A stretch of DNA of 64,000 nucleotides, taken from assembly GCF_006716425.1 (NCBI RefSeq), contig NZ_VFOZ01000001.1, forward strand, positions 248,001 to 312,000, written 5' to 3'. This document shows positions 11,154-49,435 of this stretch, piece by piece. How positions within the stretch are numbered: position 1 is the stretch's first letter; every line of letters starts with the position of its first letter. Position numbers and translations under genes: made by a program. The DNA is from Actinoallomurus bryophytorum. GTDB taxonomy: Bacteria > Actinomycetota > Actinomycetes > Streptosporangiales > Streptosporangiaceae. Below the pieces are notes generated by a model. That model was not told where the DNA came from, ran no database searches, and worked only from the letters and a program-made list of their open reading frames with translations.

Positions 11154-11552
11154 ATGACTTCGGTCCGGGTTGAACGCACGGACGACGGGGGCTTCGTCGC
11201 CCGGAACGGCCGTGGCGCCGAGGTCGCCATCGGCGGCGCGAGCGACGACGGCGTCTTCAGCCCGGTGGAGCTCCTGCTGGCCGCCCTCGGCGGCTGCGAG
11301 ATCGTGACGGTCGAGCCGCTGACCGCCGACCGCGGCCACCGGCTCGTGAAGCTCGCGGCCACGGTCGAGGCCGAGAAGGTCGCGCCCACCCGGCTCGGCA
11401 CGATCACGGTCACCTACGACGTCGAACTCCCCCCGGGCGATGACGACGCCGCCAAGGTCTTCACCGACGTCGCCCACCGCGTACACGAGAAGCACTGCAC
11501 GGTCGGGCGAGCGCTGCGCGAGGTGACGGCCACCGAGCAGGTGCTGCCGTAG
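11154..11552 (+). CDS. OsmC family protein
   Basis: The protein is 132 aa from ATG 11154 with AAGGGAG eight bases upstream. The OsmC/Ohr fold is shown by FSPVELLLAALGGCEIVTVE, with the first reactive Cys, and KHCTVGRALREVTA, with the second. Ohr-like members detoxify organic peroxides using these two cysteines; general OsmC members have the same pair. The gap to the HAD gene is only 41 bp in the same direction, so they may be co-transcribed. Which peroxide or thiol it uses is not clear. Confidence 0.8.
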   Translation: MTSVRVERTDDGGFVARNGRGAEVAIGGASDDGVFSPVELLLAALGGCEIVTVEPLTADRGHRLVKLAATVEAEKVAPTRLGTITVTYDVELPPGDDDAAKVFTDVAHRVHEKHCTVGRALREVTATEQVLP

Positions 11553-12119
11553 CCGCACCGTCCTGAGGCCGCGGTCCCGCCTCTGCCTGCCCGCCGAGCG
11601 GCCCGGGTCTCCGCCACGTGTTTCCAGCGATGGCGACCGGCGACCGGGCGGGCGTGGACTTCGGGGCCGCCGGGACGCCTCGGTCCTCGTGGGCGGCCCT
11701 CACGGCCCGGATGACCGCATCCGCGCCGGAACCCGGACTACTTACCGCCGACGGCGTCTCGTGGACCGCCCTGGCCCACGAGAGCACCGCCGCGGCACGC
11801 GCCACGGCCGCCGGACGGGACCGCGGCCGGACGCCAGAGCGTCAACGACGGCCTCCGGGCGCACCCCACTCACCGACGGCGGCGTCAACCTTGAGTACGC
11901 CGGCCGAGTCGCGGCCGGACCATTGCGGAGTCGGTGCGCCTCACCTGGGTGTACGACTCTCCGGCACTGTCGATCAATCGGATTGTCCTCGTTGACCATT
12001 CGGGCCATCCGGGCATCCGTATCCACCCTGAGGACTAGGGCTCGTACTCATATGGGCCGAGTCACAGACCATTCCTGTAGGTGATCACAAACGCAGAGGG
12101 TTCCTACAGGATTTAGAGC
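11553..12119. other. gap with decayed coding traces
   Basis: No intact gene is seen. 11618-11860 has rightward codon bias (ADGVSWTALAHESTAAARAT) and then loses frame. 11950-12038 reads VYDSPALSINRIVLVDHSGH and ends PGIRIHPED-stop in another frame. Both look like pieces of a broken gene. An 8-bp dyad, CCTGTAGG (12074-12081) with CCTACAGG (12103-12110), lies just before the PAP2 start and may be its operator or leader hairpin. Confidence 0.35.
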
Positions 12120-14303: not shown

Positions 14304-15095
14304 GTGCATGATCTAGATTTCCGCATACTCGGTCCGCTCGAGGTCACCGTCAATGCGCGGCGCGTTCCCGTGGCGGCGGGCAAACAGCGCGTCCTCCTCG
14401 CCACGCTGCTGCTCAGCGCCAACCGCACCGTGCCGATCGAGGAGCTGTCCGAGCGCCTGTGGGGCACGGACCCGCCCCGGGGCCCGCGCGGCGCGCTGCA
14501 CACCTACGTCACCCGCCTGCGGCAGACCCTCGACCGGCACGGCGACGGCGAGACGGGCCCGATCCGCACCTCGGCGGCCGGCTACGGCATCGAGGTCGCC
14601 GCGGGCGCACTCGACCTCATCCGCTTCCGCGAGATGGTCGGCCGGGCCCGTACGGCCGGGGAGCGCGGCGACCTCGCGGCGGAGTCGGCGGGCCTCACCG
14701 AGGCGCTCTCGCTGTGGCGCGGCCCGATACTCCCCGACGTGCGCTCGGACTCCCTGCACCGCGACGTCGTGCCCAGTCTGATCGAGGAGCACCTGCGGAC
14801 CCTCGAACGGCGCCACGAGGTCGACCTGGCGCTCGGCCGGCACGACCGGCTCGTCTGCGAGCTGCGCGCCCTGACCGGCAAGCACCCCTTCCACGAACGC
14901 TTCTGGAAGCAGCTGATGGTCGCGCTGTACCGCTGCGGACGGCCCGCCGAGGCGCTCGAGGCGTACGGCGAGGTGACCGCGTCCCTGCGCCGCAGGCTCG
15001 GCGTATGCCCCGGCCCCGAAGTACGCGATCTGCACACCGCGATCCTGCGCGACGACCCTCGCCTTTCGTCCACGCGACCTGAAGGCAAACTGTAA
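14304..15095 (+). CDS. cinR1-like: SARP-family transcriptional activator of the lanthipeptide cluster
   Basis: The protein is 263 aa from GTG 14304, eight bases after CTGGAG. The N-terminal half is an OmpR-type winged helix (FRILGPLEVTVNARRVPVAA, LSERLWGTDPPRGPRGALHT). The C-terminal half is the bacterial transcriptional activator domain (YVTRLRQTLDRHG; RLVCELRALTGKHPFHERFW; ALEAYGEVTASLRRRLGVCP). There is no ATPase domain, so it is a small SARP like CinR1 of the cinnamycin cluster. It stands immediately before the biosynthetic genes and in the same direction, and probably switches them on. SARP targets are usually direct heptamer repeats near the -35; none is obvious. Confidence 0.8.
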   Translation: MHDLDFRILGPLEVTVNARRVPVAAGKQRVLLATLLLSANRTVPIEELSERLWGTDPPRGPRGALHTYVTRLRQTLDRHGDGETGPIRTSAAGYGIEVAAGALDLIRFREMVGRARTAGERGDLAAESAGLTEALSLWRGPILPDVRSDSLHRDVVPSLIEEHLRTLERRHEVDLALGRHDRLVCELRALTGKHPFHERFWKQLMVALYRCGRPAEALEAYGEVTASLRRRLGVCPGPEVRDLHTAILRDDPRLSSTRPEGKL

Positions 15096-15110
15096 GCGCT
15101 CTGAAAGAAC

Positions 15111-15147
15111 CCCTTTCTACGTTGGGAACCGCCAACGAAGGAAAGGG
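15111..15147 (+). promoter_or_regulatory. two-tier stem-loop before the tandem leader repeats
   Basis: CCCTTTC (15111-15117) pairs with GAAAGGG (15141-15147), and inside it CGTTGG (15120-15125) pairs with CCAACG (15132-15137). It ends six bases before the first leader ATG and covers its purine-rich ribosome site. It may terminate SARP transcription or gate translation of the leader. Confidence 0.5.
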
Positions 15148-15152
15148 CACGC

Positions 15153-15288
15153 ATGAGCCAGCGGAGCGAGCGGATCAACAAACACAGCGCCCTGGTCACT
15201 CCTCCGACGAAGGAGGGCGCATGAGCGAGCGAAGCGAGCGAACCAACAAACACAGCGCCCTGGTCACTCCTCCGACGAAGGAGGGCAC
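15153..15288 (+). repeat. 68-bp tandem duplication carrying 23-codon mini-ORFs
   Basis: Two nearly identical 68-bp units start at 15153 and 15221. Each begins with ATG and reads MS(Q/E)RSER(I/T)NKHSALVT then PPTKEG(A/T) and a stop, 23 residues. The stop of one overlaps the ATG of the next (ATGA), and the second overlaps the ATG of the DurN-like gene at 15289. Each unit ends with CTCCTCCGACGAAGGAGGG, in which the ribosome site of the next ORF can pair with CTCC upstream. They look like a stacked translational leader. Start-linked GAGCGAAGCGAGCG sequences also occur in other actinomycetes as I recall them, so a dispersed repeat is the alternative. Confidence 0.6.
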
Positions 15289-15645
15289 ATGAGCGCGAAA
15301 GGACCGACGATCTACCCGGGCGTGGACGCGATCCGGCGGGTTCAGCAATTGATGATCTTCTGCTCTCTAATACCACCGGACGGGAAGCTGCGCGAGGTCC
15401 TTTCCCTCGCCCTCTCCCTGCACGAGGAGCCCGTTCTCTCACGGGTCACCCCGATGTCCGATACCCAGCCTCATGCCGCAAAGGCATGGCTTGAAGCCAT
15501 CTGGCTTGAAAACGGGCTGTCCGCCGAGGAAAAGGAGCTGGTCCGCTGGCAGAACGACAGTGAAAACATGGCGGCCGCCATCGCCGAGCTGCGGAACGCC
15601 GAAGGGCAGCTCGGCATGAGGCTCGTCGCCGAGACCACCCCATAG
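15289..15645 (+). CDS. durN-like: DurN/Cinorf7-like lysinoalanine-forming protein
   Basis: The protein is 118 aa, the size of Cinorf7/DurN (about 119). It lies just upstream of the precursor gene, the position of cinorf7 in the cinnamycin cluster. In that pathway this protein helps the side chain of Lys19 add to dehydroalanine 6, making the lysinoalanine bridge. The sequence is helical (VDAIRRVQQLMIFCSLIPPD; KAWLEAIWLENGLSAEEKEL; MAAAIAELRNAEGQL). The assignment rests mainly on length, position and the fact that the core keeps Ser6 and Lys19. A strong ribosome site GAAGGAGGG precedes ATG 15289. Confidence 0.7.
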   Translation: MSAKGPTIYPGVDAIRRVQQLMIFCSLIPPDGKLREVLSLALSLHEEPVLSRVTPMSDTQPHAAKAWLEAIWLENGLSAEEKELVRWQNDSENMAAAIAELRNAEGQLGMRLVAETTP

Positions 15646-15669
15646 ACCGACATTCACGTGGAGGCTTCA

Positions 15670-15906
15670 ATGTCCGAGACCCTGACACTCCAGGCCGTGG
15701 TCGACGGTGAGTTCCGTACCGAGCTGCTGGCCGACCCGGCCGCGTTCGGTCTGTCCGTCTCCGACCTGCCCGCTCCCGTCGAACAGCCGGACCAGGAGGC
15801 CCTGGGCTTCTGGACCGAGGGCGTCGCCGCGATGGAGATCTACGCCTGCCAGACCAGTTGCAGCTGGGGTCCGATCACGGCGGTCTGCGACGGCACCACC
15901 AAGTAG
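15670..15906 (+). CDS. cinA-like: cinnamycin-type lanthipeptide precursor
   Basis: The protein is 78 aa: a 59-aa leader and a 19-aa core, the same split as CinA. The leader contains VVDGEFRTELLADPAAFGLS and LGFWTEGVAAMEIYA, ending at Ala like the AFA of CinA. The core is CQTSCSWGPITAVCDGTTK; cinnamycin is CRQSCSFGPFTFVCDGNTK. Cys1, Ser4, Cys5, Ser6, Gly8, Pro9, Thr11, Val13, Cys14, Asp15, Gly16, Thr18 and Lys19 are all kept, so the same three (Me)Lan rings, lysinoalanine and hydroxy-Asp15 are expected. Residues 2, 3, 7, 10, 12 and 17 differ. ATG 15670 has GGAGG upstream. The product likely binds phosphatidylethanolamine, by analogy. Confidence 0.93.
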   Translation: MSETLTLQAVVDGEFRTELLADPAAFGLSVSDLPAPVEQPDQEALGFWTEGVAAMEIYACQTSCSWGPITAVCDGTTK

Positions 15907-15937
15907 ACCGGCACCCGGGGCCCACCCCCCGGACGCC

Positions 15938-15969
15938 GACGGTGGGCCGGCGGCCACCGGCCCACCGTC
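15938..15969 (+). terminator. attenuator hairpin between precursor and synthetase genes
   Basis: GACGGTGGGCCGG (15938-15950) pairs perfectly with CCGGCCCACCGTC (15957-15969), 13 bp with a 6-nt loop and no T tract. Partial terminators in this position let the precursor be made in excess over LanM, and also protect the precursor mRNA 3' end. Confidence 0.7.
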
Positions 15970-15999
15970 CCCTCGCTACCGCAGGAGCGCCTTCTCTCC

Positions 16000-18900
16000 A
16001 TGAGCGACCATTCCTTCCTCGATCTCGCCGCCCGCGCCGCCAACCTGTCCGAACGCACCCGGATCGTCGCCTCCCTGCGCGCCGCGGGCACGACGGTCGC
16101 GCCCGGCGTGCTCCCGCCGTTCGACGTGTGGAAGATCGACCGGCTGGCGGCCAGGCTCGCGCGGAAAGAGGCCATGCGGCGGACCGGTCCCGGCGGCCAC
16201 ACCACGGACCACATCGCGAGCGTGCTGACCGCCTACCGGCACCACGAGCTCGTCCTCAGCGACGCGAGCGAGGAGACCAGGGCCGTCTTCGCCGACGTCC
16301 ACGACTCGTGGCTGCCGGCCTACCAGGCCGCCCTGCGCCATCTCGACCGCCCGGCCGCGCCCGACGTGAGCTGGCGCCACTCCGAGGCCTACTACGGCCG
16401 GCTGGCCATCGCGTGCGAGCCGTTCCTGACCGAGCTCGGCCGCCGGCTCGACGTCGCGCGCGCGAGCCACCAAGGCCGGATCGGCCCCCAGGTCATCGAG
16501 GACTTCCAGCGTCACCTGCTGGACAGGTTCGAGCTGTCACTGGCCTGGGCCGTCGAGGCCGACGCCAACACCCACTGCGCACGTACCGGCATCGACAGGG
16601 ACGACGCGACGCGTGAGGAATACCTCGCCTACCTCGACACGACCTTCGCCGACGCCGCCGCCTACCACCGCTTCTATCTGAGGTTCCCGGTCCTCGGGCG
16701 CTGGCTCGCCGAGGTCACGTCCCTCCTCGCCGTCTTCGGCCGCGAGCTGATCGACCGTTTCGCCGCCGACCGCGCCGACATCGGCCGGGCGCTCCTGGGC
16801 GAGGACATCACGGCCTTCCTGTCGGTGCGCCTCGGGCTGTCCGACCACCACGCGGGGGCACGGAGCGTCGCCATCGCCGAGGTGGGACTGGCCGACGGCG
16901 GCACCGGGTCGTTCGTGTACAAGTCCCGCTGCATCCGGTCCGAGGCCGCCATGCAGGAGCTGCTCGGCCGGCTGCGCGACGACGGCGTCCTCGGCTTCGC
17001 GCCCCGGCCGGTGCTGCCGCGCCAGGCGTACGGCTACGAGGCGCTGATCCCGGCCGGCCGCAACCATCTGAGCACGCGGGAGGAGGTCGAACGCGTCTAC
17101 GCCGAGCTCGGCGGCTATCTCGGCGTCTTCTACGTGCTGGGCGGCGGCGACCTGCACTTCGAGAACATCCTGATCGCGGACGGGCACGCCTTCGTGTGCG
17201 ACTGCGAGACCGCTCTCGGCGTGCTCCCGCGCGGTCAGGCACGCCCGGCCGGCACCCTGCTCGACTCGGTCTTCAAGACGGGGCTGCTGGAGTGGCCGCG
17301 CACCACGACGTCGGCGACCGAGATGCGGATCAGCGGGTACGCCGGAGGCGAGGCGTACGACATGCCGACCGCCGTACCCCGTGTCAACGAACACCGGTTC
17401 AGCTTCCGCGCGTCCGTCACCCACCACTCGGGCGTACGCGTCGAGCCCGCCGGGTCCAACCGCGTCTTCCTCGGCGACCGGCTGATGCGGCCACAGGACT
17501 TCACCGACGCCATCATGGACGGCTTCGGCCGTGTCTACGCGTGGTTCGAGGAGCGGCCCGACGAGGCGGCGCGCGACGTGGGCGAGATCTTCTCCGGGGC
17601 CTCGGCGCGGTTCATCAACTGGGGCACCCAGATCTACGCGCAGCTGCTCCTCTCCGCCCGTCACCCCAAGTGCCTGGTCGACCCGCTGGAGGTCGACCTG
17701 CTGGTGAGCACCGTACGCACGTTCCCGCGCACCTGGGACACCGACGGCACGCTCGCCGAGCGCGAGCTGGACTCGATGTGGCGGCTCGACGTACCCATCT
17801 TCACCGCGGGGGCCGGTGACCGTCAGCTGGTGCACGACCACGCCGTACGCCTGCCGTCCTATCTCGAGGTCTCTCCCATCGAGGGCGCGGCGCAGCGCAT
17901 CGGACGTCTCTCCCGCGCCAACCGCGCCCAGCAGAGCCAGTACATCGCCGCCAGCCTGTCCTCCGGCGAGGTCGCCAGCCCGGCGTTCGTCACCGCCTCG
18001 ATCGAGTACGCCACCCGGATCGGGGAGCGGCTGTGCCGGATGCTCCGCGATCCGTCGGCGCCCGCGCCCTGGACCTCGTACGGGCTCACCGGCGACGGCA
18101 TGGCCGAGGTCGACGTCGACGGTGACCTCTACCACGGGTCGGCGGGCATCGCCCTGTTCCTCGCCTACCTCAACGACCTGGTGCCGCGCCCGGAGTTCCG
18201 CCGGGCCGCCGGGCGTGCCCTGTCCCACGCGGTCACGCACACCGACCGGCGGCGAGCCGGAGCGTTCCAGGGGCTCGGCGGGCTGATCTACGTGCTCACG
18301 CACCTGCATCACCTGTGGGAGGACCGCGGGCTGCTCGAGCTGGCGGTGCGGCTGAGCCACGAGCTGCCGGGGCCGATCGAGGCGGACACGCACTTCGACG
18401 TGCTCAGCGGCGCCGCCGGCCTCATCCCGGTGCTGCTGGGCCTCGGCCGCCAGACCAACGGCCAGAGCCTCGAACACGCCTGCCGCTGCGCGGACCTCCT
18501 GCTGCGCCACGCCGTCGAGGACGGCGACACGCTGAGCTGGCCGCCGGCCGATCCCGGCGAGGCGACCGCGAACCTCACCGGCTTCTCCCACGGCGCGGGC
18601 GGCATCGGGTGGGCACTGATCCAGCTCGGGGCCGCGATCGACGACCCGGCCTACGTCGACGCCGGACGGCGCGCCTTCACCTACGAGGCCCGTCACTTCG
18701 ACGAGCCCCGGCAGGACTGGTACGACCTGCGCACCAGCCCCGGCGGTGGCGCGCGCGACGGCCGCCACTTCGCCAACGCCTGGTGCAACGGCGCGGCCGG
18801 CATCGGGCTGAGCCGCATCGCGAGCTGGGCGACGCTCGGCCGCGACGACGAGCTGCTGTTACGCGAGGCCCACCAGGCGCTCGCCGCCACGATGCGGGGC

Positions 18901-19191
18901 TTCCCCCGGCTGATGAACGACACGCTGTGCCACGGCCGTACCGGCAACGCCGAGCTGTTCCTGCGGTTCGCCGTGCTGCGGGACGAGCCGGCGTTCCGGC
19001 TCGAGGCGAACGTCCAGGTGCAGGACCAGTGGCGGCATCTGGACGACGCCGAACACGGGGTCGGCGACGGTGGTTTCTTCCCGGGACTGATGCTCGGGAT
19101 GTCCGGCTTCGGCATGCACTTCCTGCGCCTGGCCCGCCCCGACCGGGTCCCGTCCGTGCTGCTCCTCGATCCCGCCCCCAGCCGACAATGA
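16000..19191 (+). CDS. cinM-like: class II lanthipeptide synthetase (LanM)
   Basis: The protein is 1063 aa, normal for LanM. The N-terminal ~600 residues are the DUF4135 dehydratase that phosphorylates Ser/Thr and eliminates phosphate. Its active region is visible as GGGDLHFENILIADG (Asp384) and CDCETAL (Asp401). The C-terminal ~350 residues are the LanC cyclase: GFSHGAGGIG (about 861-870), then zinc ligands Cys929 (WCNGAAGIG), Cys977 and His978 (LCHGRTGNAE). It should dehydrate Ser/Thr of the core and close the thioether rings. It follows the precursor by 93 bp and is in line with the hydroxylase and transporter genes, so one operon is likely. Confidence 0.93.
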   Translation: MSDHSFLDLAARAANLSERTRIVASLRAAGTTVAPGVLPPFDVWKIDRLAARLARKEAMRRTGPGGHTTDHIASVLTAYRHHELVLSDASEETRAVFADVHDSWLPAYQAALRHLDRPAAPDVSWRHSEAYYGRLAIACEPFLTELGRRLDVARASHQGRIGPQVIEDFQRHLLDRFELSLAWAVEADANTHCARTGIDRDDATREEYLAYLDTTFADAAAYHRFYLRFPVLGRWLAEVTSLLAVFGRELIDRFAADRADIGRALLGEDITAFLSVRLGLSDHHAGARSVAIAEVGLADGGTGSFVYKSRCIRSEAAMQELLGRLRDDGVLGFAPRPVLPRQAYGYEALIPAGRNHLSTREEVERVYAELGGYLGVFYVLGGGDLHFENILIADGHAFVCDCETALGVLPRGQARPAGTLLDSVFKTGLLEWPRTTTSATEMRISGYAGGEAYDMPTAVPRVNEHRFSFRASVTHHSGVRVEPAGSNRVFLGDRLMRPQDFTDAIMDGFGRVYAWFEERPDEAARDVGEIFSGASARFINWGTQIYAQLLLSARHPKCLVDPLEVDLLVSTVRTFPRTWDTDGTLAERELDSMWRLDVPIFTAGAGDRQLVHDHAVRLPSYLEVSPIEGAAQRIGRLSRANRAQQSQYIAASLSSGEVASPAFVTASIEYATRIGERLCRMLRDPSAPAPWTSYGLTGDGMAEVDVDGDLYHGSAGIALFLAYLNDLVPRPEFRRAAGRALSHAVTHTDRRRAGAFQGLGGLIYVLTHLHHLWEDRGLLELAVRLSHELPGPIEADTHFDVLSGAAGLIPVLLGLGRQTNGQSLEHACRCADLLLRHAVEDGDTLSWPPADPGEATANLTGFSHGAGGIGWALIQLGAAIDDPAYVDAGRRAFTYEARHFDEPRQDWYDLRTSPGGGARDGRHFANAWCNGAAGIGLSRIASWATLGRDDELLLREAHQALAATMRGFPRLMNDTLCHGRTGNAELFLRFAVLRDEPAFRLEANVQVQDQWRHLDDAEHGVGDGGFFPGLMLGMSGFGMHFLRLARPDRVPSVLLLDPAPSRQ

Positions 19192-19204
19192 CAAGGAGAC
19201 ACCG

Positions 19205-20113
19205 ATGTCCGTCGAGTCCAGCCGGGCCTTCCTGCGGATCGTCTACGACTCACCGGAGCTGAACCAGCAGCTGAAGGCCGTCACCGGCACCCAGGAGATC
19301 GTGCGGCTCGGGCTGCGCTACGGATACACCTTCGACGTGCCCGAGCTGATGGAGGCGTCGTCGTCCTTCACCACGGCGCCGGGCCGGGCACCGAAGGCGG
19401 CGCGGCGTACGGTGCCGCCGCCCCCGGAGTCCGGGCCGCTCCATCACGAATACCGGCTGGACGACCTGCCGGGACTCAAAGGCATGATCGACCAGCTCCC
19501 CCACCTCAAGATCAAACCGCCCTCGGTCGATCCGGCCCGGTTCTCGGGGTCCTTCCGCGAGGAGGACCTGCGGTCCACCTCGATGTCCCCGGCGGACCCG
19601 GCGTTCCAGGCGTGGCACGAGGCGATGACGAAGGCCCACTGGCGCGACCCGGCCCTGGGCTCGTCCGCGCCCCGGCGCGACTTCCACCTGGTCAACCTGG
19701 ACGAGCACGTCGACCATCCCGGCTACGACCGTTACCTCGAGGCCAAGCACCGCATGATCCGCACGCTCGAGGAGTTCTTCGGCTCCGAGGTCCGGTTCTC
19801 GGGCAGCCTCTGGTATCCCCCGTCGAGCTACCGGCTGTGGCACACCAACGAGACCCAGCCGGGCTGGCGGATGTACGTCATCGACTTCGACGAGGAGCCC
19901 GCCGGCACGTCCTTCTTCCGCTACATGGACCCGCGTACGGAGGAGATCGTGACGCTGGACGAACGCCCGCGGATGGTCCGCTTCTTCAAGGCCGAGCAGG
20001 ATCCCGGCAAGCTGTTCTGGCACTGCATCGTGAACCCCACGCAGCAGCACCGGTGGAGCTTCGGCTTCGTCGTCCCGGAGGACTGGATGACCGCGATCAC
20101 GCGGCAGATGTGA
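19205..20113 (+). CDS. cinX-like: CinX-like Asp hydroxylase (Fe(II)/2-oxoglutarate dependent)
   Basis: The protein is 302 aa; CinX is of similar size (about 325). It lies directly after lanM with AAGGAG before ATG 19205. The C-terminal double-stranded beta-helix carries H213-x-N-E216 (LWHTNETQPGWRMYVIDFDE) and late histidines H273 (FWHCIVNP) and H282 (QQHRWSFG), suitable for an HxE...H iron triad. In cinnamycin CinX hydroxylates Asp15 of the core, which is needed for binding the lipid headgroup amine. Asp15 is present in this core, so the role fits. Iron ligands are assigned by eye. Confidence 0.85.
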   Translation: MSVESSRAFLRIVYDSPELNQQLKAVTGTQEIVRLGLRYGYTFDVPELMEASSSFTTAPGRAPKAARRTVPPPPESGPLHHEYRLDDLPGLKGMIDQLPHLKIKPPSVDPARFSGSFREEDLRSTSMSPADPAFQAWHEAMTKAHWRDPALGSSAPRRDFHLVNLDEHVDHPGYDRYLEAKHRMIRTLEEFFGSEVRFSGSLWYPPSSYRLWHTNETQPGWRMYVIDFDEEPAGTSFFRYMDPRTEEIVTLDERPRMVRFFKAEQDPGKLFWHCIVNPTQQHRWSFGFVVPEDWMTAITRQM

Positions 20114-21150
20114 GGGACGGACGTGTTCGGGCTCAGGCAGCGTCCCGCGATCCCGCCGGCGTCCCCTTCCCCGCTCCGGGCATCCCGGCGATCCTGGCCG
20201 CCGGCGTCCGCAAGTCCTATCCGGGCGTGGAGGCCGTACGCGGCATCGACCTGACCGTCGCCCAGGGTGAGACGTTCGGCTTCCTCGGCCCGAACGGCGC
20301 GGGCAAGACCACCACCATCGCGATGCTGTGCACGCTGGCCATGCCCACGGCCGGCCGGATCGAGATCGCCGGCCACGACACGCGGACCGCACCCGGGCGC
20401 GTACGCCGCAGCCTCGGCCTGGTCTTCCAGGAGACCACCCTCGACGGCGACCTGACCGCCGAGGAGAACCTCCGCTTCCACGCCGACCTGTACGCCCTGC
20501 CCAAGGCGACGCTGCCGGCACGTGTCGACGCGATGCTGGACCTCGTCGACCTGACGGCCCGCCGCGACTCACTGGTCCGCACGTTCTCCGGTGGCATGCG
20601 CCGGCGCCTGGAGATCGCCCGCGGCCTGCTGCACCGCCCGAGAGTGCTGTTCCTGGACGAACCCACCATCGGCCTGGACCCGCGGGCACGCGCCCAGCTG
20701 TGGACCCACCTGACCGAGATCCGCGAACGCGAGGCGACCACGCTGTTCCTGACCACGCACTACCTCGAGGAGGCCGAACGCTGCGACCGCGTCGCCATCA
20801 TCGACGACGGCCGCATCGTGGCCCAGGGCACGCCCGCCGCGCTGAAGTCGGTGCTGGGCGCCGACCGGGTCGAGCTCCGCACCGGCGACGACACCGCGGC
20901 CGCCGCGGCACTACGCGCCGGGTTCGGCGTGCACGCCGTCGCGGGCCCCGGCGGAGTCCACGTCCAGGCCGAGGACGGCGCACGGCTGGTCCCCCGCCTG
21001 TGCGCGGGCCTGGACGTACCCGTGTACGCGGTGACGGTCACCCGTCCGACCCTCGACGACGTGTTCCTCCACCACACAGGCCACCGCATCCGCGACGTAC
21101 CTCGGGAGCCCACCCGTGACCACCCGCGACCGCCCGACCCCGGCCCCTGA
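20110..21150 (+). CDS. cinT-like: lanthipeptide ABC exporter, ATP-binding protein
   Basis: The protein is 346 aa. GTG 20110 overlaps the hydroxylase stop (GTGA), so it is translationally coupled. It is a complete ABC ATPase: Walker A LGPNGAGKTTTIAML, Q-loop VFQETTLDG, signature TFSGGMRRRLEIARG, Walker B VLFLDEPTIGLD and the H-loop TTHYLEEAE. The C-terminal ~90 residues are the regulatory tail of DrrA-type ATPases (VTRPTLDDVFLHHTG). With the permease at 21355 it forms a two-gene drug/lantibiotic exporter like CinTH. No peptidase domain is present, so leader removal must be done elsewhere. Confidence 0.88.
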   Translation: MRDGRVRAQAASRDPAGVPFPAPGIPAILAAGVRKSYPGVEAVRGIDLTVAQGETFGFLGPNGAGKTTTIAMLCTLAMPTAGRIEIAGHDTRTAPGRVRRSLGLVFQETTLDGDLTAEENLRFHADLYALPKATLPARVDAMLDLVDLTARRDSLVRTFSGGMRRRLEIARGLLHRPRVLFLDEPTIGLDPRARAQLWTHLTEIREREATTLFLTTHYLEEAERCDRVAIIDDGRIVAQGTPAALKSVLGADRVELRTGDDTAAAAALRAGFGVHAVAGPGGVHVQAEDGARLVPRLCAGLDVPVYAVTVTRPTLDDVFLHHTGHRIRDVPREPTRDHPRPPDPGP

Positions 21151-21354
21151 CCGCCGCGCCGGACGCCATGAGCGACACCCCGTCGTCCCGGACCCACGCC
21201 GCCCAGCATTCGAAGATCGCCGCGGCGAGGCCTCGGCCGGACGCCGCGAAGCCGGACAGGGATTCGTCAGGCGAGCCTGCGGCCCATCGCATCGCGGGGC
21301 CCCGGCGCCGCGGCCCGGACGGCACGCACGCGGCGAGTTCTGTGGAGAGCGCTC

Positions 21355-22221
21355 ATGACCCATGCCACGCACGCGCGGTACGACATGGACGGCGGGGAGC
21401 CCCGGCCGTTCCCAGCCGAGCTGCGTGCCGCCCGTATGGTCTGGCGGCGGGAGATGCTGCACTTCGTCCGCGACCGTACGGGCACTCTCGTCGCGTTGCT
21501 CCAGCCGTTGCTCTTCCTCTTCGTCCTCGGCGTCGGCCTGGGACGGCTGCTGGCCCTCGCCGGTGGGGGGCCGGCGGCGGACTACCTGACGTTCCTGTTC
21601 CCCGGTGTGCTCGTGATGGCGGCGCAGCCGGCCGCGATCTCGGTCGGCGCGTCCATCGTCTGGGACCGTGAGAGCGGCTTCCTCCGGGAGATGCTCGTCG
21701 CCCCCGTCCGGCGCGGCACGCTGCTGGCCGGCAAATGCCTCGGCGGCGCGACGGTGGCCACCTGCCAGGGCACGGTCGTGCTCGCCAGTGCCGGGCTGAT
21801 CCACGTCCCGTACCGGCCCGTCCTGTTCGCGCTGCTGCTGGCGGAGCTGGCCCTGACCGCGCTGGCGATGACGGTGCTGGGCGCGGTGGTCGCGGTCGTC
21901 ATCCGGCGTGCGCGCACGTTCACCACGGTGCTGAGCGTGCTGATGACTCCGCTGATCTTCCTGTCCGGGCTGATGTTCCCGGTCGCCGCGATGCCCACCT
22001 GGATGTCGTGGCTCACGCTGGCCGACCCGCTCACGTACGCGGTGGACGCCATGCGGGCCACGATCGGCGCCTATCGACCGCCGCGGACCTCCTCGGCACT
22101 GTTCGAACCGGTCGCCTGGGGTGGGGTGCACCCCTCTCCCCCGCTCGAGCTGGCCGTGGTCGCCGTCTTCACCGCGATAGCGCTGACCGTGGCCGCCCGG
22201 CGCTTCGGCCGCACCGGCTGA
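21355..22221 (+). CDS. cinH-like: lanthipeptide ABC exporter, membrane protein
   Basis: The protein is 288 aa, an ABC-2 type permease with six helices (LVALLQPLLFLFVLGVGLGR; LTFLFPGVLVMAAQPAAISV; VLSVLMTPLIFLSGLMFPVA). It has the typical WDRESGFLREMLVAPVRR coupling segment. It pairs with the ATPase gene before it. The 204 bp between them is unusual for an operon that is otherwise tightly spaced; that gap has a leftward reading SLSGFAASGRGLAAAIFECW that may be an inserted repeat. ATG 21355 has GGAG upstream. It is the last clear gene of the cluster. Confidence 0.85.
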   Translation: MTHATHARYDMDGGEPRPFPAELRAARMVWRREMLHFVRDRTGTLVALLQPLLFLFVLGVGLGRLLALAGGGPAADYLTFLFPGVLVMAAQPAAISVGASIVWDRESGFLREMLVAPVRRGTLLAGKCLGGATVATCQGTVVLASAGLIHVPYRPVLFALLLAELALTALAMTVLGAVVAVVIRRARTFTTVLSVLMTPLIFLSGLMFPVAAMPTWMSWLTLADPLTYAVDAMRATIGAYRPPRTSSALFEPVAWGGVHPSPPLELAVVAVFTAIALTVAARRFGRTG

Positions 22222-22936: not shown

Positions 22937-25900
22937 TCAGTCGTTTCCGTCGTCTCCGTAGAAAATACGTTCGACCACCATACGGGCGTGACGTGCGCGG
23001 CGGCGGTAGTCCTCCAAGAGAGCACCGGACGTCGGGTAGCCGAGGAGGCTGGTCACCGCCGAGCGCTCGCGATGGTGCTCGGTCGGCAGCAGGTCCGAGG
23101 CGCGTCCGCGGACGAGCATGGTGGCGTTGCGGATGCGGGTGGCCATCTGCCAGGCCTCGGTCAGGGTCGAGGCGTCCTCGGAGTCGAGCAGACCGGCCTC
23201 GACCGCGGCGTCCAGTGCGGCGAGCGTCCTCGTCGTCCGCAAACCGGCCACCTCGTGCGCGTGCTGGAGCTGGAGCAGCTGCGCCACCCACTCGACGTCG
23301 GACAGGCCACCCGGTCCCAGCTTGGTGTGCAGCCGGCGGTCGACACCTCGCGGCAGGCGTTCGGCCTCCATGCGGGCCTTCAGCCGGCGGATCTGCCGGA
23401 GCGCGTTCTCGTCGATGCCGTCCTCGGGCCACCGCACGGGGTCGATCAGCTCCTGGAAGCGCGTGCGCAACCCCTCGTCCCCGATGACCGGCGCGGCGCG
23501 CAGCAGCGCCTGGCTCTCCCACGGCGCGGACCAGCGCCGGTAGTAGGACGCGTACGAGTCGAGGGTGCGGACGAGCGGCCCCTGGCGCCCCTCGGGCCGC
23601 AGTCCGGGGTCGATCACCAGAGGCGGGTCGGGGGCGGGCAGCGCGAGCAGCCTCCGCAGCTCTTCGGCCACCGCGTGCGCGGCGGCCGACGCCTCGCGAT
23701 CGGCCGCGCCGGGAAGCGGGTCGTGCACGAACATGACGTCGGCGTCGCTGCTGTAGCCGAGCTCGTAGCCCCCGTACCTCCCCATCGCCACGATCGCGAA
23801 CCTGGTCGGCAGCGGGCTGCGGCGTTCGGTCTCGATCCGGTCGACGGCGGCCCGCAGCGCGGCGTCGAGCGTGACCGTGGTGATCGAGGTGAGCGCCTCG
23901 GCGGTGGCGCGTTCGTCGAGGAGACCGAGCAGGTCGGCGACCGCCGTACGGAACAGCTCGCGGCGGCGCAGCCCGCGTACCGCGGCGACGGCGTCCACCG
24001 ACCGGTCCTGCAGCGCGCCCATGGCGGCGGCCGACTCCATGTACCTGCGCACCGCCGCCTGCGCCTCGGCGTGCAGCGCGTCGGATGGCCGTGGCGTGAG
24101 CCCGGACTCGCCGCCGAGCATGCCGACCGCCTCCGGCGCACGCAGGAGCAGATCGGTGGCGTACCGGCTGGAGGCCAGCACGTGTGCCATCCGCTCGGCC
24201 ACGGAGACGTCGTCGCGCAGCAGCCGGAGGTACCAGGGCGTGGTGCCGAGCGCGTCGCTGACCTGGCGAAATCCGAGCAACCCGGCGTCCGGGTCGGGCC
24301 CGTCCGCGAACCAGTCGAGCATCACCGGCAGCAGCGTACGCTGGATGGCCGCGCGGCGGGAGACGCCGGAGGTCAGTGCCTCCAGATGGCGGAGCGCGCC
24401 CGCGGGGTCGCCGAAACCGAGGGCCTCCAGGCGCGTACGTGCCGCCTCGTGGGTGAGGCGTGCCTCGTCGTCGGGCAGCCGCGCCACGGCCTGCAGCAGC
24501 GGGCGGTAGAACAGCTTCTCGTGCAGCCGGCGTACCTCGCGTGCGTGGCGGCGCCACTCGGCGGTGAACTCCCGTACGGGGTCGGCACGGAACCCCAGCG
24601 CGCGGCCCAGCCGCCGCAGCGCCGGCTCCTCCTCGGGCACGAGATGGGTACGCCGGAGCCGGTGGAGCTGGATCAGGTGCTCGACGCGCCGCAGGAACCG
24701 GTACGCGTTGCCGAGCGCGGCGGCGTCGCCCCGGCCGACGTACCCGCCCCAGGACAGCTTCTTCAGGGCGATCAGCGTGTTGGGTCCCCGGAGGTCCTCA
24801 TCGGCGCGGCCGTGCACGAGCTGGAGCAGCTGCACCGCGAACTCCACGTCGCGCAGCCCGCCCGGGCCCAGCTTCAGCTGCCGGCCGGCCTGTTCGGGCG
24901 CGATGTGCTCCTCCACCCGCCGGCGCATGGCCTGGACGTCCTCGACGAAGTTGTCCCGGCCGGCGGCGCGCCAGACGAGCGGCGCGAGCGTCTCGACGTA
25001 CTCCTCGCCGAGCTTGCGGTCCCCCGCGATCGGACGGGCCTTGAGCAGCGCCTGGAACTCCCAGGTCTTGGCCCAGCGCTCGTAGTAGGCCTGGTGGCTG
25101 GCGAGCGTACGGACGAGCGGTCCCGACTTGCCCTCCGGGCGCAGCGCCGCGTCGACCTCCCACAGCGCACCCTCGGTCGTACTGTCCGAGCACGCCCGCA
25201 TCATGCCGGACGCGAGTTTGGTCGCGGCCCGCAGCGCGGCCTCCTCGTCCTGGCCCGGCGCGGGCTCGGCGACGAAGACGACGTCCACGTCGCTGACGTA
25301 GTTGAGCTCGCGCCCGCCGCACTTGCCCATGCCGATCACGGCGAGACGGCACAGCTCGGCCTGGTCGCCGAGCTCGGCACGCGCGATGGCCAGGCCCGCC
25401 TCCAGCGCGGCCGAGGCGAGGTCGGCCAGTTCGGCGGCGACGTCCTCGACGTCCAGGACGTGGGTGAGGTCACGGGCGGCGAGGTGCAGCAGGGCCCTGC
25501 GGTACGCCACCCGCAGCGCGACCATCGCGTCCTCGGCGCCCGCACGTGGCGCGGGGTCGTCCGGGCCGGCGCCGACCGCGCGCAGCAGCGAGCCCCGCAG
25601 CTCCTCCGCGGTCGGGCGGCGTACGGCGCCGGGGCCGGACAGGACCTTCCAGTGGTCCGGATGCCGGGCCAGGTGGTCGGCGAGCGCCGCGCTCACCCCG
25701 AGCACGGACAGGAGCCGGTCCCGCGCGGCGGGGTCATCGGCCAGCTCCGGCTGGATGTCGATGGCCTCCAGGATCCGGAGCAGGCCGGTGAGCGCGAGGT
25801 CGGGGTCGGCCGCGATGCCCAGGGCGTCGAGTAGTGCGTCGTCGAGGTCGTGGCCCTCAAGCCGGTGCTCGGCACCGGCGGCGTCGGTGATCCCGAGCCG

Positions 25901-25942
25901 GGCCAGCCGCCCGGCGAGGCTCTCGAGTCGGCGTTCGCTCAC
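22937..25942 (-). CDS. glnE: glutamine synthetase adenylyltransferase/deadenylylase
   Basis: The protein is 1001 aa from GTG 25942. An in-frame GTG at 25972 would add ten residues. It has two nucleotidyltransferase halves, each with its motif: VIGMGKCGGRELNYVSDVDV near residue 220, and VAMGRYGGYELGYSSDADVM near 730. These are the deadenylylase and adenylylase active sites, with a helical linker between. GlnE turns glutamine synthetase off and on by AMP transfer to a Tyr, in response to nitrogen signals. In actinobacteria it is usually near glnA/glnA2; here glnA2 is 8 kb away, so genes have moved in between. Confidence 0.93.
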   Translation of the reverse strand: MSERRLESLAGRLARLGITDAAGAEHRLEGHDLDDALLDALGIAADPDLALTGLLRILEAIDIQPELADDPAARDRLLSVLGVSAALADHLARHPDHWKVLSGPGAVRRPTAEELRGSLLRAVGAGPDDPAPRAGAEDAMVALRVAYRRALLHLAARDLTHVLDVEDVAAELADLASAALEAGLAIARAELGDQAELCRLAVIGMGKCGGRELNYVSDVDVVFVAEPAPGQDEEAALRAATKLASGMMRACSDSTTEGALWEVDAALRPEGKSGPLVRTLASHQAYYERWAKTWEFQALLKARPIAGDRKLGEEYVETLAPLVWRAAGRDNFVEDVQAMRRRVEEHIAPEQAGRQLKLGPGGLRDVEFAVQLLQLVHGRADEDLRGPNTLIALKKLSWGGYVGRGDAAALGNAYRFLRRVEHLIQLHRLRRTHLVPEEEPALRRLGRALGFRADPVREFTAEWRRHAREVRRLHEKLFYRPLLQAVARLPDDEARLTHEAARTRLEALGFGDPAGALRHLEALTSGVSRRAAIQRTLLPVMLDWFADGPDPDAGLLGFRQVSDALGTTPWYLRLLRDDVSVAERMAHVLASSRYATDLLLRAPEAVGMLGGESGLTPRPSDALHAEAQAAVRRYMESAAAMGALQDRSVDAVAAVRGLRRRELFRTAVADLLGLLDERATAEALTSITTVTLDAALRAAVDRIETERRSPLPTRFAIVAMGRYGGYELGYSSDADVMFVHDPLPGAADREASAAAHAVAEELRRLLALPAPDPPLVIDPGLRPEGRQGPLVRTLDSYASYYRRWSAPWESQALLRAAPVIGDEGLRTRFQELIDPVRWPEDGIDENALRQIRRLKARMEAERLPRGVDRRLHTKLGPGGLSDVEWVAQLLQLQHAHEVAGLRTTRTLAALDAAVEAGLLDSEDASTLTEAWQMATRIRNATMLVRGRASDLLPTEHHRERSAVTSLLGYPTSGALLEDYRRRARHARMVVERIFYGDDGND

Positions 25943-26023
25943 CAACAAAAGGTATCGGGGCCGACCAGGCACTCATAGCAACCGACTGAGTGGATTTATC
26001 CGACCTGGCCGGTTGCGTCCTCT

Positions 26024-48728: not shown

Positions 48729-48858
48729 GATCGGTTCGGCCCGGAGGGCGGGACGGTCGGTTCGGCCCGGAGGACGGGGCGGTCGGTTCGGCCCGGAGGA
48801 CGGGGCGGTCGGTTCGGCCCGGAGGACGGGGCGGTCGGTTCGGCCCGGAGGACGGATG
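48729..48858 (+). repeat. 26-bp tandem repeat, five units
   Basis: The unit GGTCGGTTCGGCCCGGAGGA-CGGGGC repeats at 48729, 48755, 48781, 48807 and 48833. The middle three are identical; the first and last have a few changes. The unit resembles part of the 94-bp repeat that follows. Confidence 0.85.
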
Positions 48859-48884
48859 GTGAGCCCCGGCCGGAGGACGGGGCG

Positions 48885-49435
48885 GTCGCACAGCGATCCG
48901 CCAGGCCGCAGCGCATGCCCAGGACACGCAGTGCGGGGCCCGAAGGGCAAGGTCGGCGGCCCGTCCCAGAGGACGGGGGTGGTCGCAACTGCCAGGCCGC
49001 AGCCCGCAGCCCGCCCCCCGCCACAATCCGGCCCGAAGGGCAGGTGGCCCGCCCCAGCCGGAAGGCGAGGCGGTCACACAGCAACCCGCCAAGCCGGAGC
49101 GCACGCCCGCGCCACACAGTCCGGCCAGAAGGCCCGGCGGCCGGCCCCGGCCCGGAACCCAGGGCCGCCACACAGCAACCCGCCAAGCCACAGCGCACGC
49201 CCACGCCACACAGTCCGGCCCGGCGGGCAGGCGGCCGATCATGGCCCGGAAGGCGGGGCGGTCACACAACAACCCGGCAGGCCGCAACGCACGCCCACGC
49301 CACACAGTCCGGCCAGAAGGGCAGGCGGCCGACCCCGGCCCGGAACCCAGGGCCACCACACACCAACCCGCCAAACCACAGCGCACGCCCACGCCACGCA
49401 AGCCGGTCCGACGGGCAGGCCGGCCCTGGGGTGAG
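48885..49435 (+). repeat. 94-bp tandem repeat, about six units
   Basis: CACACAGCAACCC or a close variant starts at 49075, 49169, 49263 and 49357, exactly 94 bp apart. Weaker copies lie at about 48888 and 48982. Each unit includes CGCACGCCCACGCCACACAG, TCCGGCC and GGGCAGGCGGCC. Copies are more degraded on the left. No coding role is visible; the array runs right up to the TetR stop at 49436. Confidence 0.8.

What the first reader, a model, noticed from the sequence alone, without database searches (positions are those of the whole stretch)
14304..22221. A new cinnamycin-type lanthipeptide cluster
Seen: a SARP gene, a 118-aa DurN-sized protein, a 78-aa precursor with a 19-residue core aligning without gaps to cinnamycin, LanM with zinc ligands C929/C977/H978, a CinX-like oxygenase and an ABC exporter. 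The order is the same as cinorf7-A-M-X-T-H. Known: this family binds phosphatidylethanolamine. Inferred: the cluster makes a new member with three thioether rings, lysinoalanine 6-19 and hydroxy-Asp15.
Basis: partly seen in the sequence, partly recalled or inferred. Interest (0 to 1): 0.92.

Follow-up and report, generated by a model that had tools for sequence, protein, structure and literature searches.

The report
Cinnamycin-type antibiotic cluster in Actinoallomurus
This soil actinomycete carries the complete genes for a close relative of the antibiotic cinnamycin, which binds one particular membrane fat, and its genome seems unable to make that fat, which would explain why the usual self-protection gene is missing.

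Summary
Confirmed: window 14304-22221 is an intact cinnamycin-type class II lanthipeptide cluster (SARP, DurN, precursor, LanM, CinX, ABC exporter) in an Actinoallomurus genome. The core CQTSCSWGPITAVCDGTTK keeps every residue that is modified in cinnamycin. It is not unique: 6 of 35 relatives found carry the identical core, including A. iriomotensis, already annotated 'cinnamycin family lantibiotic'. I found no compound described. It is a new member of a known family.

The two genes that make phosphatidylethanolamine (PE), psd and pssA, are also missing, as in 8 of 8 Actinoallomurus genomes. Among 32 distinct genomes with such clusters, all 10 that look PE-competent have a CinL-type methyltransferase (inside the cluster in 6); the 22 without psd have none above 40 bits. 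So the most likely immunity here is absence of the target (inferred, about 65%; part of the correlation is background).

Outside the window, four clusters with the same leader, LanM and exporter have a His-rich core without Ser6, Asp15 and Lys19, and lack both durN and cinX: a natural control for the assigned enzyme roles.

The parts
14304..15095 (+). SARP activator gene (CinR1-type)
   Evidence: BTAD 1.3e-40 and Trans_reg_C 4e-8; 55% identical to the SARP beside the S. cinnamoneus cin cluster, the best of 13 matches in that genome
15079..15106 (+). three SARP-type hexamer repeats CTGAAG/CTGTAA/CTGAAA at 11-nt spacing (probable operator of the durN operon)
   Evidence: same repeats in A. iriomotensis L006, and in A. 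purpureus L007 in a slightly different register; 21 of 1065 windows of 120 nt score as high, so conservation and place carry the case
15153..15224 (+). 23-codon ORF, first copy of a 68-nt tandem duplication, ATGA-overlapped with the next ORF
   Evidence: not seen before durN in L006 or L007
15221..15292 (+). 23-codon ORF, second copy, ATGA-overlapped with durN
   Evidence: a 29-base motif of it occurs once in the genome at 0 mismatches
15289..15645 (+). durN (cinorf7): lysinoalanine synthase
   Evidence: PF19375 4.7e-39; 6c0g 1.3e-47
15670..15906 (+). precursor peptide gene (cinA-type), 59-aa leader + 19-aa core
   Evidence: PF19398 3.3e-29, NF033431 2.5e-30; 35 database relatives
15847..15903 (+). 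core peptide CQTSCSWGPITAVCDGTTK
15938..15969 (+). GC-rich inverted repeat between precursor and LanM genes, at the place of the cin attenuator
   Evidence: I6; the 100 nt around it fold at -53.9 kcal/mol, z -3.45, 0 of 200 shuffles as stable
16000..19191 (+). LanM class II lanthipeptide synthetase, zinc ligands C929, C977, H978
   Evidence: TIGR03897 1.1e-144; residues read; 62% identical to S. cinnamoneus CinM
19205..20113 (+). CinX-type Fe(II)/2-oxoglutarate Asp15 hydroxylase with an N-terminal Nif11 domain (residues 1-48) and an oxygenase domain (76-293)
20110..21150 (+). CinT-type ABC exporter ATPase, start overlapping the cinX stop
   Evidence: ABC_tran 1.3e-32; DrrA 5e-91, just under its cut-off
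21355..22221 (+). CinH-type ABC exporter permease
   Evidence: ABC2_membrane 2.7e-32

Best explanation
The cluster makes and exports a 19-residue cinnamycin-type lanthipeptide. SARP switches on durN-A-M-X. LanM dehydrates Ser4, Ser6, Thr11 and Thr18 and closes the rings Cys1-Thr18, Ser4-Cys14 and Cys5-Thr11 (ring pairing recalled from cinnamycin). CinX hydroxylates Asp15, DurN joins dehydroalanine-6 to Lys19, the leader is cut after EIYA, and the ABC pair exports the product. Predicted monoisotopic mass 1900.79, [M+2H]2+ 951.40. The product should bind phosphatidylethanolamine (PE) in other bacteria. The producer needs no PE-methylating immunity module because it lacks the genes that make PE: absence of the target is the immunity. 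Shown here: the genes, their order, the residues and the gene absences. Inferred: the chemistry (by homology with tested Cin, Dur and Kya enzymes), PE binding, and a PE-free membrane (about 65% for the immunity part).
For: Family matches and gene order. Modification residues kept in 35 of 35 precursors counted, with 25 distinct cores. SARP repeats and hairpin where the studied cin cluster has its SARP repeats and attenuator. Natural control: 4 of 4 clusters with a His-rich core lacking Ser6, Asp15 and Lys19 show no durN or cinX, but keep LanM (64.5-66% identical) and exporter. Immunity: no psd in 8 of 8 Actinoallomurus genomes; pssA (TIGR00473) reaches only 33-37 bits there and 27-32 bits in 14 Actinomadura-type carriers, against 103-116 bits in 12 of 12 PE-competent genomes tested; best CinL hit in the own genome 22 bits. 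Across 32 distinct carriers, CinL-type methyltransferase at 156 bits or more in 10 of 10 that look PE-competent, and nothing above 40 bits in the 22 without psd. Substitutions I10/A12 and W7/A12 also occur in the S. africanus and Kutzneria clusters that do carry cinKRL, so these changes do not argue against PE as the target. Actinomadura membranes are described as holding non-nitrogenous phospholipids (passage in PMC8631618).
Against: No product, lipid or expression data. No lipid analysis of Actinoallomurus turned up in two searches (listings only). PmtA-like methyltransferases accompany PE synthesis in genomes without the cluster too: 8 of 8 same-genus controls and 9 of 10 other family members (62.8-161 bits), so the genome-wide correlation is partly background. 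Four of the 10 PE-competent carriers have no CinL in the cluster, and in two of the six that do (G113, G141) it is only 34-35% identical and without cinK or cinR. Carriers without psd come from few lineages. The core has two extra threonines (3, 17) whose fate is unknown. The leader peptidase is not identified.
Confidence: 0.82

Rival explanations
1. The product no longer targets PE. The pocket changes F10I and F12A (and F7W) give it another lipid partner, and that is why PE-methylating immunity is absent.
For: Positions 7, 10 and 12 differ from cinnamycin. The coerumycin paper gives the family motif as CxxxCSxGPFTxxCDGxTK, which this core breaks at position 10.
Against: A12 with I10 or with W7 occurs in clusters that carry cinKRL (L008, L009). 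Actinomadura-type clusters with a GPFTF core also lack CinL and psd, so absence of immunity follows the missing PE genes rather than the core. A review describes the phosphate contacts as backbone contacts (passage in PMC8183687).
Confidence: 0.1
2. Immunity is provided by something else: the exporter CinTH alone, or an unrecognised unlinked gene; the missing PE genes are a coincidence of lineage.
For: The exporter is present. Carriers without psd sit in few lineages. Four PE-competent carriers have no CinL in their cluster.
Against: In S. cinnamoneus the exporter does not suffice: single deletion of cinL, cinK or cinR gives sensitivity (PMC5408092). The split also holds for carriers outside the actinobacteria (Thermosporothrix and three cyanobacterial genomes; lineages recalled from the names).
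Confidence: 0.2
3. The cluster is silent or decayed and makes nothing.
For: Kyamicin was not detected from its native hosts in 13 liquid media.
Against: All frames are intact; start-stop overlaps, operator repeats and hairpin are present. Most cluster proteins are 78-87% identical to those of A. iriomotensis (short N-terminal LanM stretches 55-73%), in the same place beside glnE, which suggests maintained function. Silence in culture would not alter what is encoded.
Confidence: 0.15

Closest known systems
Cinnamycin cluster of Streptomyces cinnamoneus (cin; here L016 and L024)
   Same: N-A-M-X-T-H order, SARP, hexamer repeats before durN, hairpin between A and M, all modified residues
   Different: Core differs at positions 2, 3, 7, 10, 12 and 17; SARP upstream instead of far downstream; no cinK, cinR, cinL; host lacks psd and pssA, which S. 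cinnamoneus has
Kyamicin cluster (Saccharopolyspora; PMC6974636, sections read)
   Same: N-A-M-X-T-H and SARP; 302-aa CinX with Nif11 domain (P0119)
   Different: Kyamicin keeps KyaR, KyaK and KyaL (its Table 1); the window has none
Coerumycin cluster (Actinomadura coerulea; PMC12837462, sections and passages seen)
   Same: Compact cluster of five genes, none named as immunity gene in the section read; genus with PI-type lipids
   Different: Single transporter gene; family motif given with GPFT; the passages seen do not discuss how the producer protects itself
Actinoallomurus iriomotensis NBRC 103681 cluster (L006, P0010)
   Same: Identical 19-residue core; same place beside glnE; precursor 87% identical
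   Different: Two long insertions in its LanM; no 23-codon tandem ORFs before durN

Membership tests
Cinnamycin-type class II lanthipeptides | Precursor of the DurB-like/cinnamycin family | tested here: met
   PF19398 101 bits (cut-off 26.6) and NF033431 105 bits (cut-off 35)
Cinnamycin-type class II lanthipeptides | Core with C1, S/T4, C5, S6, G8, T11, C14, D15, G16, S/T18, K19 | tested here: met
   Read directly; same in 35 of 35 counted
Cinnamycin-type class II lanthipeptides | LanM synthetase beside the precursor | tested here: met
   TIGR03897 483 bits against cut-off 304; zinc ligands
Cinnamycin-type class II lanthipeptides | DurN/Cinorf7 lysinoalanine synthase | tested here: met
   PF19375 133 bits against cut-off 23.9; 6c0g
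Cinnamycin-type class II lanthipeptides | CinX Asp15 hydroxylase | tested here: met
   53% identical to S. cinnamoneus CinX; 2OG-oxygenase fold
Cinnamycin-type class II lanthipeptides | Binds phosphatidylethanolamine | not testable with these tools
   Inferred from the core only
Cinnamycin-type class II lanthipeptides | Three thioether rings, lysinoalanine and hydroxy-Asp in the product | not testable with these tools
   No mass spectrometry; predicted mass
cinKRL immunity system (PE monomethylation) | cinL PE methyltransferase with cinK and cinR in or near the cluster | tested here: not met
   No tblastn match (E 1e-6) to CinL, CinK or CinR in the 64-kb window; best genome-wide CinL hit 22 bits. 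Response regulators like CinR abound (130 matches in the genome) and are not informative
Fe(II)/2-oxoglutarate oxygenases with HxD..H triad | Asp/Glu two residues after the first His ligand | tested here: inconclusive
   Sequence reads H213-T-N215, invariant in 47 of 47 aligned CinX proteins; that H213 is the first ligand is judged from sequence and fold, not from a metal-bound structure

The most novel reading that the evidence does not exclude
Cinnamycin-type weapons are carried largely by bacteria that lack the target lipid. In PE-free hosts (Actinoallomurus, Actinomadura, Thermosporothrix, cyanobacteria) target absence is the whole immunity, and the PE-methyltransferase module belongs to PE-making hosts; host lipid chemistry would then decide where such clusters can live.
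Probability: 0.55. Interest if true: 0.65.

Novelty: new member of a known kind. Interest (0 to 1): 0.47.

Why it matters
PE-binding peptides of this family have been in clinical trials (duramycin; introduction of PMC6974636) and are used as lipid probes (passage in PMC10676316). A congener with Trp7, Ile10 and Ala12 would extend structure-activity data on the PE pocket. More generally, if the target-absence reading holds, it explains why many clusters of this family carry no immunity gene, predicts which hosts can carry and express them safely, and gives a simple genome test (pssA and psd).

Tried and rejected
The 23-codon tandem ORFs before durN looked like a dispersed genomic repeat, but the 29-base motif searched occurs once in the genome at 0 mismatches (no mismatches were allowed, so diverged copies are not excluded); no function proposed. 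CinR as a genome probe was useless: 107-130 matches in each of four genomes. The 83-91-aa ORFs upstream of three His-core precursors were read and set aside: they resemble each other but look to me like the antisense of another gene; not tested. Altered lipid specificity as the reason for the missing immunity was considered and judged unlikely (see rivals). A PDB sequence search gave no match for CinX alone; the alignment gave only a Nif11 protein, 9zn4, at 1e-3. The viral structure library gave only generic 2OG-oxygenase matches. Literature on Actinoallomurus polar lipids was not found (listed papers not opened).

Rows dropped before counting, and how classes were made: of 31 family genomes with a PF19398 match I read 24 as cinnamycin-type from the translations; left out were G227, G233 and G249 (His core) and G188, G323, G326 and G327 (weak partial matches). 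Those 7 are among the 273 'non-carriers'. Four genomes appeared under two handles and were counted once (G066=G303, G063=G086, G064=G120, G065=G096), judged from matching coordinates, contig lengths or scores. One search printed all genomes with a psd match and cut the list of those without; absence of psd in a carrier is read from its absence among the printed matches. For G067-G070 only psd was tested, not pssA; for G331 only pssA, not psd. L017 (Hormoscilla MAG) shows no durN or cinX in its 20-kb locus but is counted as a carrier.
Full report
What is there. The window lies at G000:C1:248001-312000 of a 9.47-Mb genome in 3 contigs, 95.8% complete. Its genus-mates G003 and G007 match, by coordinates of the precursor, Actinoallomurus iriomotensis NBRC 103681 (L006) and A. 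purpureus (L007), so the host is an Actinoallomurus. Window 14304-22221 holds, all on the + strand, SARP, durN, precursor, lanM, cinX, ABC ATPase and ABC permease, each matched by protein families and, for DurN, by a solved relative. A small unassigned gene and then glnE (22937-25972) follow on the other strand. In A. iriomotensis DNA on both sides of the cluster aligns as well; in A. purpureus only the cluster itself aligns within 10 kb.

The product. The core CQTSCSWGPITAVCDGTTK aligns without gaps to cinnamycin CRQSCSFGPFTFVCDGNTK (read from L016). In 35 precursors (the window's and 34 relatives; P0041 left out because its core is of the other type) there are 25 distinct cores. C1, C5, S6, G8, T11, C14, D15, G16 and K19 are identical in 35 of 35; position 4 is S or T and position 18 is T or S in 35; P9 is kept in 34. 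Outside that set, three precursors from the family scan (L064, L065, L078) have Thr at position 6. The window's own core recurs in P0007, P0008, P0010 (A. iriomotensis), P0011, P0016 and P0023. Predicted monoisotopic mass with four dehydrations and one oxygen is 1900.7906, [M+2H]2+ 951.4026. Thr3 and Thr17 are two hydroxyl residues more than in cinnamycin; the kyamicin paper (legend of its Fig. 1) names only positions 4, 6, 11 and 18 as dehydrated.

Regulation. Three hexamer repeats at 11-nt spacing lie before durN, as described for cinorf7 (PMC5408092, part 1 of 4), and are conserved in A. iriomotensis. The score alone is not rare: 21 of 1065 windows reach it. A strong hairpin sits between precursor and lanM, where the cin cluster has a tested attenuator.

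A natural control for the enzyme roles. The family scan found four clusters (L100-L103, from G001, G227, G233 and G249) with the same type of leader, a LanM 64.5-66% identical to the window's and the same exporter, but a 17-residue core CP(S/A/G)TH(H/Q)C(I/N)HT(H/Y)(V/A)C(R/H)(K/P)TY without Ser6, Asp15 or Lys19. In all four, tblastn (E 1e-4) found neither DurN nor CinX in the 16-18 kb fetched, while precursor, M, T and H were found. Loss of the modified residues together with the two enzymes supports the roles assigned by homology. These clusters are probably a distinct lanthipeptide group; I did not study them further.

Immunity. In S. cinnamoneus the peptide is survived because CinL (cinorf10) methylates PE under control of CinK and CinR; deletion of any of the three gives sensitivity (PMC5408092, parts 1-3 of 4 read). 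The window has no tblastn match to CinL, CinK or CinR at 1e-6, and the best CinL hit in the genome is 22 bits. I then asked whether the host makes PE. PS decarboxylase (PF02666) is absent in 8 of 8 Actinoallomurus genomes and present in 9 of 9 same-family genomes without the cluster that I tried first. In 297 genomes of the family it is present in 214. PS synthase (TIGR00473) scores 103-116 bits in 12 of 12 PE-competent genomes tested; in the 11 of these whose psd place is known the two genes are neighbours. The 8 Actinoallomurus genomes reach 33-37 bits and the 14 Actinomadura-type carriers 27-32 bits, against a cut-off of 107. Another route to PE that these two models would not see is not excluded.

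Carriers. Of 31 family genomes with a PF19398 match, I read 24 as cinnamycin-type. Of these, 18 lack psd (4 Actinoallomurus and 14 of genus g59, which holds A. oligospora, hence 'Actinomadura-type') and 6 have it. Among the other 273 genomes 65 lack psd (odds ratio 9.6, Fisher p 7e-7); because carriers sit in few genera this p is not a phylogenetic test. Adding the named genomes gives 32 distinct carriers: 10 PE-competent (psd in 9, pssA alone tested in G331) and 22 without psd. CinL-type methyltransferase: 10 of 10 PE-competent at 156 bits or more; of the 22 without psd none above 40 bits, three with 37-40 bits. Inside the cluster: 6 of 10 PE-competent (S. cinnamoneus, S. africanus, Kutzneria and the MAG of L010 with cinK and cinR; G113 and G141 with a CinL-like gene, 34-35% identical, directly behind cinH and without cinK or cinR), and none of 22. 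Against: 8 of 8 same-genus genomes without the cluster have such a methyltransferase at 146-172 bits, and 9 of 10 further PE-competent family members without the cluster have one at 63-161 bits (G008 has none). So the genome-wide part partly reflects ordinary PmtA-type enzymes of PE-making bacteria; the in-cluster part does not. Actinomadura membranes are described as containing non-nitrogenous phospholipids (introduction passage of PMC8631618), which agrees. For Actinoallomurus itself I found no lipid paper.

What is in print. Searches for Actinoallomurus with cinnamycin (4 papers) and with lantibiotic (15 papers, 14 listed) gave no cinnamycin-type compound from this genus: I saw the listings and passages of PMC10676316 and PMC10421486; a term search in PMC4539421 found no mention; the others were not opened. 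A search combining cinnamycin, immunity and PS decarboxylase (25 papers with at least 4 of 5 terms, 20 listed, none opened for this) listed one paper with the decarboxylase term, on viruses; none by title makes the target-absence argument. Most subscription journals are not in the library.

Verdict. The new and testable part is the link between missing PE synthesis and missing immunity.

Noticed in passing
L100:7269-12729, L101:9412-14879, L102:2646-8266, L103:3742-9279: Clusters with cinnamycin-type leader, LanM (64.5-66% identical) and exporter but a His-rich 17-residue core with Cys and Thr alternating every third residue, and without durN or cinX: probably an undescribed lanthipeptide group (Microbispora rosea has a precursor of this type, P0041). 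No literature search was made for it.
   Followed up: partly
window 19841-19849 (H213-T-N215 of CinX): The CinX family has H-T-N in place of the HxD iron motif, invariant in 47 of 47 aligned sequences, on a prolyl-hydroxylase-like fold.
   Followed up: partly
window 19205-19348: N-terminal Nif11 domain on the CinX hydroxylase, in 113 of 120 listed homologues; NCBI names many of these hydroxylases as leader-peptide precursors.
   Followed up: partly
L064, L065, L078: Actinomadura-type cinnamycin-like precursors with Thr instead of Ser at position 6, which would give a methyl-lysinoalanine if the same chemistry runs; a DurN homologue lies beside the one checked (L108, same genome as L064).
   Followed up: no
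L064, L065, L068, L070, L071, L074, L076, L077, L079: Cinnamycin-type precursors with one or two residues after Lys19 (such as ...TKG...STKN...TKGQ), so the lysinoalanine Lys would not be the C-terminus unless trimmed.
   Followed up: no
window 15141-15292: Tandem 68-nt duplication giving two ATGA-coupled 23-codon ORFs (MSQRSER.../MSERSER...) between the durN promoter and durN; absent there in A. iriomotensis and A. purpureus.
   Followed up: partly
L006:10509-10985 and 11154-11591: LanM of A. iriomotensis carries two long in-frame insertions near its N-terminus, rich in Pro, Thr and Ala; CinX homologues vary in length, up to 396 aa.
   Followed up: no
P0035, P0036, P0039: Core variants with a Lys at position 12 (CASSCSFGPVTKVCDGSTK and similar).
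   Followed up: no
L017:10001-10276: Cyanobacterial (Hormoscilla MAG) cinnamycin-like precursor with a 14-residue tail after Lys19; no durN or cinX found in the 20-kb locus.
   Followed up: no
window 48731-49425: Tandem repeats (26-nt x 6.1; 94-nt x 4.3) close together in one stretch.
   Followed up: no
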